This document shows, piece after piece, positions 13,601 through 15,857 of a stretch of 64,000 bases of DNA. The first letter of the stretch is position 1. The number at the start of each line of letters is the position of its first letter. The stretch is from an uncultured cyanobacterium (GTDB lineage: Bacteria; Cyanobacteriota; Cyanobacteriia; PCC-6307; Cyanobiaceae), in contig CAIZQU010000162.1 of assembly GCA_903935205.1 (NCBI GenBank), positions 1-64,000 of the forward strand, written 5' to 3'. Below the pieces are notes generated by a model, which was not told the DNA's origin, made no database searches, and saw nothing but the letters and a program-made list of their open reading frames with translations. Both the position numbers and the translations under genes were made by a program.

Positions 13601-14586
13601 CGCGGACATGTCCAGTCTTCCGCAGCCAGATGGACGCGGATCTAACCAAAAAGATCTACAGCCGTGTACCAGTGCTGGTCCACGAGGGCCTAGAGCAAGC
13701 AGGAAATCCTTGGGGCGTCAGCTTTCGTCAGGGCTTGTTCAATATGACAAGTGATAGCAATCTATTTTTCTTTGAGCCGGACGCAGATCGCCTTCCACTG
13801 TACGAAGCCAAGCTAATCCATCACTACGATCATCGATGGGCTACCTATACCGCCGATGGCTCCTGCCGTGATGTAACACTGGCCGAAAAGCAGGATTCTT
13901 ACTTTCAGGTCAGGCCGCGCTACTGGGTGGAGAGATCTGAAGTGCATGCACGGATGATAGCGCAGGGGTGGGATCGGCAGTGGCTGATGGGATGGCGTGA
14001 CATATGCCGATCCACTGACGAAAGAACTGTGATTGCTTCCGTTGCTCCCTTGGCAGGGTTCGGCGACACCTTCCTGCTTATGTTTCCATGCGCAAGCCAG
14101 GGAAAGCTATTTACTTGCCTTCTAGCAGACCAAGTGTCCATCATTCATGATTTCGTGCTGCGTCAGAAAGTTGGAGGTACGCACCTGAAATACCACTACA
14201 AAAAGCAAGGCACGAATCTGCCCCCCAGCACCTACACCCAAGCCGCCATCGACTTCATCCAACCACGCGTCCTCGAACTCACCTACACCGCCCACGACCT
14301 GAAGCCCTGGGCCGAAGACCTCGGCTACGACGGTCCTCCCTTCATCTTCGATCCCGAACGCCGATCCCTGCTGCGGGCTGAACTCGACGCCTACTACGCC
14401 CACCTCTACGGCCTCACCCGCGATGAGCTGCGCTACGTCCTTGATCCAGCCGATGTGATGGGCCCCGATTACCCCAGCGAAACCTTCCGCGTGCTCAAGT
14501 CCAATGAACTCCGCCAGTTCGGCGAGTACCGCACCCAGCGGCTGGTGCTGGAGGCGTGGGATCGGTTGTTTGGGGGTGGTGGGTGA
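10633..14586 (+). CDS. Eco57I-like N6-adenine DNA methyltransferase (type IIG/PglX/DrmMI-like)
   Basis: This 1317-residue protein has SAM motif I DPACGSGHF near residues 534-542 and catalytic motif IV NPPW at 799-802, diagnostic of N6-adenine methylases. About 500 N-terminal helical residues precede the catalytic core, and a target-recognition region follows NPPW. The C-terminal tail reads YYAHLYGLTRDELRYVLDP and later QRLVLEAWDR. Its role is probably self-marking for the island's helicases. Base composition changes inside the gene: from about 13030 to 14215 it is visibly A/T-richer than both flanks, suggesting a swapped recognition domain. The start ATG 10633 lacks a clear ribosome site. The stop overlaps the next gene (TGATG at 14584-14588). 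A second copy of the last 170 bases lies at 15666-15835. Confidence 0.88.
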   Translation: MARTTATVSFQAIELKGSLLPGSLLEQVARLQAPMQKEADYGLAKGERLRERIDAAWVRLKEIWEEYKDLRARAAQSTAGMHCGQRLLREVLGWPDLQPCSGWQHGDAHFPITHRAFLEPEDAQRRSADHATTSATIRLSDAPPATTGRDSVPLILRGIAADQLDKGSSQFGQESRRRSPHSCLQECLNADDNANWGLLLTGDRLRLLHDNPSLVKPAYLAVDLELLVEGELFDEFAVVWLLLHASRFRHPQTGSCVLDTWKEQAQEAGERVLGQLRNGVQQALEALGNGLLLHPENELLRNQLASGALSGQELHRQLLRLVYRFLFLFTAEDRDLLFPRTLGQEDPRRRIYREGYSVGRLRELAIRRSASEGPYGDLWHTQKLVFLQLRQSSSPLGLPGLGGLFAEPQCRALQECELANRFLLRAIRAIGWFQATGTLTRVNYRDLNTEELGSVYEGLLELHPQLERAGGSWQLSYGGGAGSDRKTTGSYYTPDQLVQLLIVSALLPVIADRLSKATTPQEKEEALLAIRVLDPACGSGHFLLAAARRLALELARIRAGDEEPSEELRQECLREVVAHCIYGVDKNPMAVELCKVALWIEAVDPGKPLSFLDAHIQCGDSLVGVFDPKVLEQGIPDEAYKPLTGDDKTVCTSLKKENASFRKAGQKGTLQGTLNLQSSPPISRSQQRLQEIEAMPETTLAEGSAKQAAYEAWEQERSSDPQTLAADLYTAAFFLPKTKDSRAKVPTSEHLLLLQSGQEIPGDLELAEEQAAKDFRFFHWHLRFGEVMEKGGFDCVLGNPPWEVSQLNEIEFFSSIRLEIAKLSGAARKTAIADLENSDPTLWREFAIAKRGFDCSNLFYRSGRFPLCAQGKVNTYALFAEHFLCLMGHGGRSGLVVPTGISTDNSTKDFFDKVSSSGLLASLISFENESFIFRDVHHAYKFCLLTLRVPSNRETPSEFAFYIRHFSQLSDEDRFFKLTPDEIALVNPNTRTCPVFRSQMDADLTKKIYSRVPVLVHEGLEQAGNPWGVSFRQGLFNMTSDSNLFFFEPDADRLPLYEAKLIHHYDHRWATYTADGSCRDVTLAEKQDSYFQVRPRYWVERSEVHARMIAQGWDRQWLMGWRDICRSTDERTVIASVAPLAGFGDTFLLMFPCASQGKLFTCLLADQVSIIHDFVLRQKVGGTHLKYHYKKQGTNLPPSTYTQAAIDFIQPRVLELTYTAHDLKPWAEDLGYDGPPFIFDPERRSLLRAELDAYYAHLYGLTRDELRYVLDPADVMGPDYPSETFRVLKSNELRQFGEYRTQRLVLEAWDRLFGGGG
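14398..14567 (+). repeat. Direct repeat copy 1 (methylase 3' end)
   Basis: This stretch of the methylase 3' end recurs 1268 bases downstream at 15666-15835. Reading both copies base by base I count about a dozen differences in 170 positions and no indels. Confidence 0.9.
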
Positions 14587-14982
14587 TGGAGTTTGAGTTC
14601 TTGATCCCAGACCGGCCTGTCTCCGTCCAGGCGCGGAGGCGGCAGCGGAAGCAGGAATGGCAACAGTTTGTCGCCGAGGAAGCAGCCAAGACCTGGGAGA
14701 GATCACCCATTGCCGATAAGAATCTGCAATGTACCTTGATTTATCTTTGTCCCTGTTGATATTGACAATATAGTCAAGCCCATTCTCGACGCACTTAAAG
14801 GATTAGTCTATGAGGATGATATCCTGATTACGGATGTTGAGGCCCGACGCCGCCCTCTTGCCTCGCCTTCCGACTACAATGTACAGCAATGGCCTAATCA
14901 CCTGCTGCAAGGCTTGCTGAGTGGTAACGAATGTGTCTATGTGCGCATTTCTGAACAGCCCATCCTGGAGGAAAAACTATGA
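14586..14982 (+). pseudogene. RusA-like Holliday-junction resolvase, frameshifted
   Basis: The frame from ATG 14586 (overlapping the methylase TGA) reads MEFEFLIPDRPVSVQARRR and hits a stop at 14757-14759. One base out of frame the sequence continues as PVDIDNIVKPILDALKG then LVYEDDILITDVEARR and ends at TGA 14980-14982. The D-x-D-N-x-x-K-P...DAL...YEDD pattern is the active-site region of RusA-family resolvases. The combined span is 397 bases, 132 codons plus one, so a single-base insertion (or an equivalent change) near 14740-14756 breaks it. Normal RusA length is about 120-135 residues. Both ends still overlap their neighbours, so the break is recent, a sequencing error, or bypassed by frameshifting. 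Confidence 0.7.
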
Positions 14983-15656
14983 ACACCAATCCTGGAGTCC
15001 CCCTCGGATCACCAAAGCCCCAAAGCGGTCTTGAGGCAAGAGTTGCCGAGAAATATCTGCAACAAGGATTTTCTGTGATCACAAATCCACCTTTGAGCAG
15101 CCTTCCATTCGACCTTGGTGGCTACAGGCCAGACTTGATAGCCCAGAAGGAATCTGGTCAGAATTACATCATTGAGATCAAGAATGCTTCTCGTCAAATT
15201 TCTGTAGATCGCTTCAGAGCGATTGCCGAGAACGTTCAATCCCATCCAGGTTGGCGATTCTTGCTGGTGACCAGTGATGACGACCTCCCGATTGGATCCG
15301 AGGGCGACCTTTTTCGGTACGACGAAGCTCTGCTGCGAGCCGATCAGGCTGAAGCGCTGATTGCGAGTGGGGCTGCTGAGGCAGCTTTCTTATTCCTATG
15401 GAGCACCCTGGAGGGGATGATGCGACGGCGTTCGATTGAGTCTGCTATCCCAATCGACCGATTGATGCCCCTGGCAATGACCAGTCATCTGTATTCTCAG
15501 GGCGAATTGTCTCGTCTGCAGTTTCACCGCATTAAAGACCTGATCTCCAGCCGCAATCGTGCAGCCCATGGCTACCACGATCCCCAGCTGGAAGAAGGGG
15601 CAAGAGAGCTGCTTTTACTCGTGCGGGAACTTGCCAATGAATGGAAAGAGGACTAA
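14979..15656 (+). CDS. PD-(D/E)XK nuclease-like protein with HEPN-like C-terminus
   Basis: This is a two-part protein of 225 residues. The N-terminal half has GYRPDLIAQ...YIIEIKNAS, placing D52 and E66-x-K68 as a PD-(D/E)XK nuclease core. The C-terminal half is helical and carries RNRAAH at residues 192-197, the R-x4-H signature of HEPN domains, which are often RNases in defence systems. The start ATG overlaps the stop of the RusA-like frame (ATGA). Base composition is A/T-richer than the core operon. It resembles the restriction-endonuclease-like proteins annotated as AHJR-like in cyanobacteria; that match is from memory and unverified. Confidence 0.65.
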   Translation: MNTNPGVPLGSPKPQSGLEARVAEKYLQQGFSVITNPPLSSLPFDLGGYRPDLIAQKESGQNYIIEIKNASRQISVDRFRAIAENVQSHPGWRFLLVTSDDDLPIGSEGDLFRYDEALLRADQAEALIASGAAEAAFLFLWSTLEGMMRRRSIESAIPIDRLMPLAMTSHLYSQGELSRLQFHRIKDLISSRNRAAHGYHDPQLEEGARELLLLVRELANEWKED

Positions 15657-15857
15657 TCCCTTCATGCCCACCTCTACGGCCTCAGCCGCGATGAGCTGCG
15701 CACCATCCTCGATCCTGCCGATGTAACGGGCCCCGATTACCCCAGCGAAACCTTCCGCGTGCTCAAGACCAACGAACTCCGCCAATTCGGCGAGTACCGC
15801 ACCCAGCGGCTGGTGCTGGAGGCGTGGCATCGGTTAAAATCTGGAGATTTGATCTGA
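15657..15857 (+). pseudogene. Relic of a methylase C-terminus
   Basis: From 15666 the sequence encodes AHLYGLSRDELRTILDP, later YPSETFRVLK and RLVLEAWHRL, and ends at TGA 15855-15857. This is nearly the C-terminal tail of the methylase at 10633-14586. It is in the same frame as the upstream nuclease-HEPN gene but separated from it by that gene's TAA. There is no upstream part of a methylase. Its stop overlaps the ATPase start (TGATG), as the intact methylase stop overlaps the RusA-like start. Confidence 0.85.
15666..15835 (+). repeat. Direct repeat copy 2 (methylase 3' end relic)
   Basis: This is the partner of 14398-14567 in the same orientation. The pair brackets the RusA-like and nuclease-HEPN genes, as expected from insertion or unequal recombination between two related operons. 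Confidence 0.9.

What the first reader, a model, noticed from the sequence alone, without database searches (positions are those of the whole stretch)
14398..15857. Duplicated methylase tail brackets a two-gene insert
170 bases of the methylase 3' end recur at 15666-15835 with roughly 93% identity. The relic still ends in a TGATG overlap with the ATPase gene. A parsimonious reading is that methylase and ATPase were once adjacent, and that recombination between two related operons brought in the RusA-like and nuclease-HEPN genes with a new methylase end, leaving the old tail behind. It documents how accessory genes are shuffled in such operons.
Basis: partly seen in the sequence, partly recalled or inferred. 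Interest (0 to 1): 0.7.

Follow-up and report, generated by a model that had tools for sequence, protein, structure and literature searches.

The report
Defence methylase end displaced by cargo
In a cyanobacterial antiphage gene cluster, new accessory genes seem to have slotted in directly behind the methylase gene together with a fresh copy of that gene's end, stranding the old end in front of older accessory genes; related clusters show similar scars, which points to a way such clusters collect new genes.

Summary
In detail: 14398-14567 recurs at 15666-15835 at 93%, and the relic ends in TGATG on the ATPase start. A relative (G031) has methylase and ATPase directly joined, without a second tail. 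The nuclease cassette occurs in 4 of 400 family genomes, in 4 of 4 with a tail relic behind it, but before three different next genes: ATPase, McrB head, HipBA. The window relic looks hybrid: its left junction is shared with the relic of G030, 21 of its last 22 nt with G031's native tail. So the cassette probably moved by recombination through methylase tails. Two further relics, with other cargo, have good empty-site counterparts. Of 56 tiles of the three core proteins only the last 75 aa of the methylase occur twice, in 7 of 27 loci. In four actinobacterial loci the whole C-terminal module is present twice, in three with other genes between. The core fits ARMADA Type I. I read this as polarised cargo accretion at the methylase 3' end: a new variant of known recombination scars. 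RusA is frameshifted here; function is untested.

The parts
1062..6644 (+). YprA-family helicase with MZB (MrfA Zn-binding) domain; first gene of the core operon; start codon uncertain
   Evidence: Pfam DEAD, Helicase_C, MZB; PADLOC DruE 6e-97
6443..9697 (+). BrxHII/DrmD/DpdE-like SNF2 helicase; start uncertain (ORF overlaps the YprA end by about 200 nt)
   Evidence: Pfam; PADLOC DpdE 2e-194, DrmD 1e-84, BrxHI|BrxHII 2e-54
9692..10521 (-). PIN protein plus RHH antitoxin-like protein between helicase and methylase; at the same place in G031 (88 and 90% aa) and more distantly in G277
   Evidence: Pfam, tblastn
10633..14586 (+). PglX/DrmMI-like adenine methylase, 1317 aa; catalytic part conserved, about residues 800-1190 variable
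   Evidence: Pfam Eco57I, N6_Mtase; PADLOC DrmMI 3e-72; identity profiles
13789..14583 (+). C-terminal module of the methylase, from LPLYEAK (block A) to the tail (block B); taken as specificity module by inference
   Evidence: alignment with displaced modules; AlphaFold model of residues 798-1317, pLDDT 87, matches adenine methylases as a whole
14398..14586 (+). functional methylase tail (copy 1 of the repeat, 14398-14567, plus end); stop overlaps the RusA-like start
14586..14982 (+). RusA-like gene, frameshifted (8 nt shorter than three relatives after 14750); first gene of the inserted cassette
14979..15656 (+). AHJR-like PD-(D/E)XK nuclease with HEPN-like motif (motif recalled), 225 aa, open; second cassette gene
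   Evidence: Pfam PF18743 2e-16
15657..15857 (+). displaced methylase-tail relic (copy 2; repeat part 15666-15835); left part up to 15703 like the G030 relic, 21 of the last 22 nt like the G031 native tail; TGA overlaps ATPase ATG
15857..17254 (+). DUF3696 AAA ATPase, PADLOC HEC-03B; older first cargo gene
   Evidence: Pfam DUF3696 6e-9; PADLOC 2e-129
17251..17787 (+). PADLOC HEC-03A partner; no Pfam hit
   Evidence: PADLOC 7e-25
17784..18494 (+). RNA ligase family protein, older cargo
   Evidence: Pfam RNA_ligase 7e-29

Best explanation
The 3' end of the ARMADA-type methylase is a one-sided landing pad for accessory genes. Incoming DNA carries a methylase end plus new cargo. Recombination with the resident methylase makes the new end part of the gene and puts the new cargo directly behind it; the resident end is pushed downstream together with the older cargo, whose start codon it may still overlap. 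In the window, a two-gene RusA-nuclease cassette, already bracketed by methylase tails in its donor, entered a methylase-ATPase (HEC-03) operon like that of G031. Shown: the repeat, one empty-site relative, the same cassette before three different next genes, a relic with two-sided affinities, similar scars with other cargo, restriction to the last 75 aa, raised synonymous identity in the tail against four divergent lineages. Inferred: RecA-type recombination as agent, DNA uptake as source, and that the very first tail-cargo junction of a cassette arose by illegitimate joining.
For: Empty sites: G031 for the window, G117:C112 for G170, G151 for G030:C66, with 88, 81 and 85% identity over 300 nt past the stop. 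The nuclease is found in 4 of 400 family genomes and has a relic behind it in 4 of 4; next genes are ATPase (window), a McrB head (G001, G039) and HipBA (G030), the last two within related HipBA-McrBC stretches. Hybrid relic: AC at 15702-15703 is shared with the G030 relic and absent from 17 of 17 functional tails compared (4 more divergent of 21 left out); Thr at this site in 2 of 85 distinct tail sequences, both relics; states at 15836 and 15838-15842 are shared with G031 and none of the other 16. Tiling of YprA, helicase and methylase over 28 loci: extra copies only for methylase 1243-1317, 7 of 27 loci with a hit, 0 for the 55 other tiles. Fourfold-site identity of the window with G030, G038, G011, G117: 97/111 in the tail against 642/1018 in residues 1-117 and 150-800; controls G269, G318, G277 have 39/82 in the tail despite 83-93% protein identity (sums by hand). 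Second C-modules in four actinobacterial loci.
Against: The nuclease genes of window and G030 are only 73% identical in their last 100 nt while the adjoining 56 nt of relic are 96%: a single old junction with plain decay does not predict this jump, so later exchange in the relic must be assumed. The shared relic-specific state is one codon (two nt). The relic of G001/G039 is decayed and lacks the left part, so a common junction with the window is not shown there. Only one genome carries the methylase-HEC-03 ATPase pair without insert, and its methylase lacks about 300 N-terminal residues. Empty sites for G030 (75%) and G001/G039 (56%, diverged McrB) are weak. The G021 relic is short, 45% identical, without an identified empty site. 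Against the five closer lineages (G021, G141, G151, G024, G251) fourfold identity is no higher in the tail (73-93%) than in the conserved body (72-89%). Cargo is not tied to methylase specificity: the window's residues 1000-1190 are 62% identical to G030 (same cassette) and 59-65% to G021, G151, G011, G117 (other cargo). No transfer was observed.
Confidence: 0.68

Rival explanations
1. Each insertion is an independent homology-facilitated illegitimate recombination: one homologous crossover in the methylase, one illegitimate join in the resident methylase tail, without later movement through the tails.
For: Right-hand junctions differ between cargo types: about 200 nt of tail in window and G030, about 60 nt in G030:C66, about 66 nt in the orphan tail of G035, up to about 126 nt in G170. 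Other gene-end scars fit the same logic: a truncated McrB head before HipBA in G001/G039, an RNA-ligase C-terminus left in G151/G035. The process is described for naturally competent bacteria (PMC2884548, passages read).
Against: Window and G030 share one junction and a relic-specific state although what follows differs. Relics stay within the last 75 aa of a 1317-aa gene in 7 of 7 cyanobacterial loci, whereas random joins should be spread.
Confidence: 0.2
2. The second tail is functional: it keeps translational coupling to the next gene or is a regulatory or recombination element under selection.
For: Stop-start overlaps are kept in the window and in G001/G039; in G030, G001 and G039 the relic is an open mini-ORF starting inside the nuclease end. 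4 of 4 RusA-nuclease loci have a relic.
Against: In the window the mini-ORF is broken by a 1-nt difference; the relic is largely decayed in G001/G039; G031 has no second tail with the same ATPase; relics in G170 and G021 have 53 and 45% identity.
Confidence: 0.06
3. The relic is what remains of a complete second methylase after a deletion in a tandem operon.
For: Gives the same product; whole C-modules persist in Actinobacteria.
Against: No locus of the 28 tiled keeps a second copy of any methylase part upstream of residue 1243. In the own genome one search reported only this methylase and the relic (2 of 11 candidates were scored).
Confidence: 0.05
4. A site-specific integrase uses the methylase 3' end as attachment site.
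For: 3' ends of genes are usual integrase targets (recalled); direct repeats flank the insert.
Against: No recombinase was recognised, by Pfam or by eye, among the cargo proteins examined; left relic boundaries differ between cargo types; the repeat is 170 nt of 93%, not a short identical core.
Confidence: 0.02

Closest known systems
ARMADA Type I defence systems (Bell et al. 2025 preprint, PMC12458937; abstract and passages read)
   Different: A cargo site behind the methylase with displaced methylase ends is not in the passages I read; the word 'accessory' was not found in its main text
Insertion with long target duplication (Nobusato et al. 2000; seen only through passages of PMC1643837)
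   Same: Insertion bracketed by a long direct repeat of the target, often with restriction-modification genes
   Different: Here the target is the end of a defence methylase, with similar scars for different cargo, and one relic looks two-parental
Orphan rhs-CT modules behind rhs genes (PMC3967940, passages read)
   Same: Fragments resembling displaced parts of the main gene lie downstream with partner genes and can recombine with it
   Different: No toxin-immunity pairing; in cyanobacteria only the conserved last 20-65 residues remain
Homology-facilitated illegitimate recombination (PMC2884548, passages read)
   Same: One homologous anchor, one illegitimate end
   Different: The shared window/G030 junction and two-sided relic suggest homology on both sides for the later step
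HEC-03 (PADLOC candidate)
   Same: ATPase and partner match HEC-03B and HEC-03A
   Different: Only the older cargo of this locus; what HEC stands for was not found in the two PADLOC papers searched

Membership tests
ARMADA Type I | YprA-like helicase with C-terminal Zn-binding (DUF1998/MZB) region | tested here: met
ARMADA Type I | BrxHII/RapA-like helicase | tested here: met
   PADLOC BrxHI|BrxHII 1.7e-54, though DpdE and DrmD score higher
ARMADA Type I | PglX-like methylase | tested here: met
   DrmMI 2.6e-72, PglX 7e-15; C-terminal 520 aa model matches CamA best and BrxX/PglX among others
ARMADA Type I | order YprA, BrxHII, methylase | tested here: met
ARMADA Type I | position in the YprA tree; BrxA-like insertion in YprA | not tested
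   no tree or fold of the YprA protein was made
Insertion with long target duplication | insert flanked by a long direct repeat, single copy at the empty site | tested here: met
   window versus G031
Homology-facilitated illegitimate recombination | one end homologous, the other without homology | tested here: inconclusive
   right junctions differ between cargo types, but window and G030 share one
Integrase-mediated island at a gene 3' end | recombinase gene and fixed short core | tested here: not met
   no recombinase recognised in the examined cargo, no common core

The most novel reading that the evidence does not exclude
The methylase C-terminal module is a general exchange unit of ARMADA Type I operons. 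In Actinobacteria the second modules are open genes that begin at the module boundary (LPLYEAK) and overlap or abut the gene before; two of the methylases there are split at the same place. They could be alternative specificity subunits for one catalytic subunit, as HsdS is to HsdM, while cargo rides in between. The operon would then change both target specificity and accessory genes by recombination through two short conserved blocks.
Probability: 0.25. Interest if true: 0.8.

Novelty: new variant of a known kind. Interest (0 to 1): 0.6.

Why it matters
How antiphage operons gain accessory genes without an evident integrase or transposase is seldom visible at base resolution. Here the scar shows entry point, polarity (new cargo nearest the methylase) and likely parents of one transfer, and similar scars occur with other cargo. 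If general, displaced gene ends can be used to find and order cargo acquisitions in defence operons and, in Actinobacteria, to find candidate alternative specificity subunits.

Tried and rejected
Searched the nuclease in 72,556 plasmid records (3 distant Rhizobium hits, 30-31% identity), in 50,697 phage records (none) and in viral contigs (pattern search that finds close relatives; 13 stretches, none confirmed): no sign that the cassette travels on a phage or plasmid. Looked for a link between cargo and methylase specificity: none. Looked for extra copies of other parts of the core genes as a control: none. Considered and disfavoured an integrase, a selected second tail and a deleted tandem methylase (see rivals). 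Considered misassembly: the window genome is a draft of 169 contigs; relics in other assemblies make the repeat credible, but the RusA frameshift could still be a sequencing error.

Left out of counts: orphan tails without methylase (G035:C84, G119:C10, G119:C56) are not among the 7 relic loci. The 7 loci come from 6 genomes (G030 has two; G001 and G039 look like one event). Of loci in hand, L137, L144-L146, L153 and L154 were not tiled (no methylase or only an orphan tail), nor were further loci on the same contigs as tiled ones or on truncated contigs (L047, L049, L050, L057, L060, L061, L087). The tiles leave out the first 34 residues of the helicase and 42 of the methylase. Of 78 loci, 63 had a tail and at least 1500 nt behind it; 6 of 63 have a second tail copy. 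In one search, 4 divergent functional tails of 21 were left out.

Not in print: my literature searches listed no paper whose title or abstract start describes this pattern, but most subscription papers are not held and I read abstracts or passages only.
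Full report
OBSERVATION. Direct repeats of 170 nt at 14398-14567 and 15666-15835 agree at 158 of 170 positions. Copy 1 is the 3' end of a 1317-aa adenine methylase (10633-14586; Pfam Eco57I and N6_Mtase). Copy 2 lies in frame behind the stop of a 225-aa nuclease and runs into the ATPase start by TGATG (15855-15859). Between the copies lie a RusA-like gene, frameshifted and 8 nt shorter than in three relatives, and the open AHJR-like nuclease gene.

CONTEXT. The operon begins with a YprA-family helicase (1062-6644), a BrxHII/DrmD/DpdE-like helicase and the methylase. 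This is the gene order of ARMADA Type I as described in PMC12458937 (abstract and passages read). Behind the methylase follow the two inserted genes, then HEC-03B ATPase, HEC-03A, an RNA ligase, and PsyrT- and PsyrA-like genes. In relatives this stretch holds other cargo: McrBC, HipBA, other ATPases and several unassigned genes. Pfam supports HipA (3e-51), McrC (1e-18), an AAA_5 ATPase for McrB and a helix-turn-helix protein for HipB in G001; the names McrB and HipB are otherwise recalled. It is a cargo site.

EMPTY SITE. In G031 (same genus; contig matching VGQX01000033.1 by length) the methylase is directly joined to the ATPase. The ATPase is 92% identical in protein and the first 300 nt behind the stop are 88% identical to the window. 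Of the 20 loci compared, G031 shares with the window a PIN/antitoxin pair between helicase and methylase, and G277 has a more distant one. The G031 methylase lacks about 300 N-terminal residues (about 1 kb), so it is a marker of arrangement, not an intact system.

SAME CASSETTE, OTHER NEIGHBOURS. The nuclease occurs in 4 of 400 searched genomes of the family: the window genome, G030, G001 and G039. All four have methylase (only its end on the contigs of G001 and G039), RusA-like, nuclease, tail relic. Behind the relic follow the HEC-03 ATPase (window), HipBA and McrBC (G030), or a truncated McrB head, HipBA and a second McrB (G001, with McrC; in G039 that McrB is cut by the contig end). So the next genes differ three ways, but two of the three contexts share HipBA-McrBC. 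In window and G030 the step from nuclease stop to tail is the same (TAAT, then [CT]CCTTC[T]ATGCCCACC). In G001/G039 the relic is decayed and the junction cannot be equated.

HYBRID RELIC. Window and G030 relics share AC at 15702-15703, absent from 17 of 17 functional tails compared (4 divergent tails of 21 were left out). Among 85 distinct tail sequences covering the site only these two have Thr there (66 Tyr, 4 Phe, 13 gap). At 15836 and 15838-15842, and in the join to the ATPase, the window relic equals G031 and none of the other 16 tails; 21 of its last 22 nt equal G031. The relic therefore appears to have two parents, with the crossover between 15704 and 15835. The simplest account is that a cassette already flanked by tails recombined with the tail of a G031-like methylase. 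The left-hand mark is one codon only. Against a simple account: the last 100 nt of the nuclease are 73% identical between window and G030 while the next 56 nt are 96%. I cannot explain this jump without later exchange in the relic.

RECURRENCE. G170 has an ORF of about 310 aa, then a relic (53%), then an ATPase and RNA ligase whose relatives in G117:C112 follow the methylase directly; the next 300 nt are 81% identical. G030 has on another contig (C66) a HicA gene with a partner that I take for HicB from recall, a relic of about 60 nt and an ATPase that follows the methylase directly in G151 (85%). G021 has a decayed relic (45%) behind two unassigned genes. Weaker empty sites: G038 for G030 (75%), G011 for G001/G039 (56%; the McrB differs). 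In G035 a tail of about 66 nt stands before the same ATPase as in G151; one search reported no methylase of this family on that contig.

SPECIFICITY. I cut the three core proteins into 56 tiles and searched 28 loci. Only the last tile of the methylase (1243-1317) has a second copy, in 7 of 27 loci with a hit, from 6 genomes; the other 55 tiles have none. Many loci hold only part of YprA (5-13 loci with a hit per tile). The tiles were made after the relics were known, so this tests restriction to the tail rather than discovery.

RECOMBINATION OF THE TAIL. Against G030, G038, G011 and G117, fourfold-degenerate sites of the window methylase agree at 642 of 1018 in residues 1-117 and 150-800, but at 97 of 111 in the tail. 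Against G269, G318 and G277 the tail protein is 83-93% identical with only 39 of 82 fourfold sites equal (sums by hand). Against the five closer lineages tail and conserved body do not differ (73-93% and 72-89%). The tail is thus shared by recent exchange among some lineages, not frozen in DNA sequence generally. Cargo is not linked to the variable middle of the methylase.

ACTINOBACTERIA. In Kribbia (L078), Mycobacterium sp. ST-F2 (L112) and Pimelobacter (L117), and in G602 (17 of 297 genomes with a match, most of them short; second modules in G430, which is the L078 genome, and G602), the whole C-terminal module, from LPLYEAK to the tail, is present a second time as an open frame whose start overlaps or abuts the gene before. 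In L117 an unassigned 272-aa gene, in L078 two ORFs and in G602 a YhcG-type nuclease lie between the two modules; in L112 they are adjacent. In G602 an AAA_5 ATPase with Mrr_N domain and a McrBC-family protein follow, as McrBC does in some cyanobacterial loci. In L112 and L117 the catalytic part ends as a separate gene before the first module. G602's first module is cut by the contig end. A model of the window's last 520 residues (pLDDT 87) matches adenine methylases such as CamA, M.BseCI, M.TaqI and BrxX/PglX at TM about 0.4-0.5 over catalytic and C-terminal parts together. For PglX the C-terminal domain is reported to recognise the motif (PMC11341690, abstract and passages). That the module is the specificity domain here is inference; Pfam has no hit for the orphan modules of L117 and G602.

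READING. New cargo enters behind the methylase with a methylase end; the old end is displaced with the old cargo. The likely agent is homologous recombination through the conserved tail, after a first illegitimate capture. Truncated neighbours of another kind (a McrB head in G001/G039, an RNA-ligase end in G151/G035) suggest that one-sided illegitimate joins also occur at this site.

LIMITS. All evidence is comparative. Several loci are contig ends of metagenome-assembled genomes. The relic sample is small (7 cyanobacterial loci, four cargo types, three of them clear), and defence by this locus was not tested. 

Noticed in passing
window 24195-28392: Three copies (82%) of a 274-nt leader-like stretch, each followed by CRISPR-type repeats of about 37 nt: about 5, 6 and 1 repeats. 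Looks like a broken or triplicated CRISPR array.
   Followed up: no
window 22956-23259: cas2-like reading frame (recognised from recall, not searched) that seems split over two frames.
   Followed up: no
L138 (reverse-complement coordinates) 1615-1899; L139 1442-1726: Truncated McrB head left before HipBA and a second, longer McrB: another kind of duplicated gene end at the same cargo site.
   Followed up: partly
L122 8056-8151; L144 5937-5993: C-terminal 19-32 residues of an RNA ligase left near the conserved DUF4145-like gene at the right edge of the cargo site.
   Followed up: no
L120 about 4531: G031 methylase lacks about 1 kb of its 5' part directly behind the PIN/antitoxin pair.
   Followed up: partly
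L175 (reverse-complement coordinates) 1538-2398; L117 11769-12545; L112 13842-14624: Open orphan C-terminal methylase modules in Actinobacteria, candidate alternative specificity subunits.
   Followed up: partly
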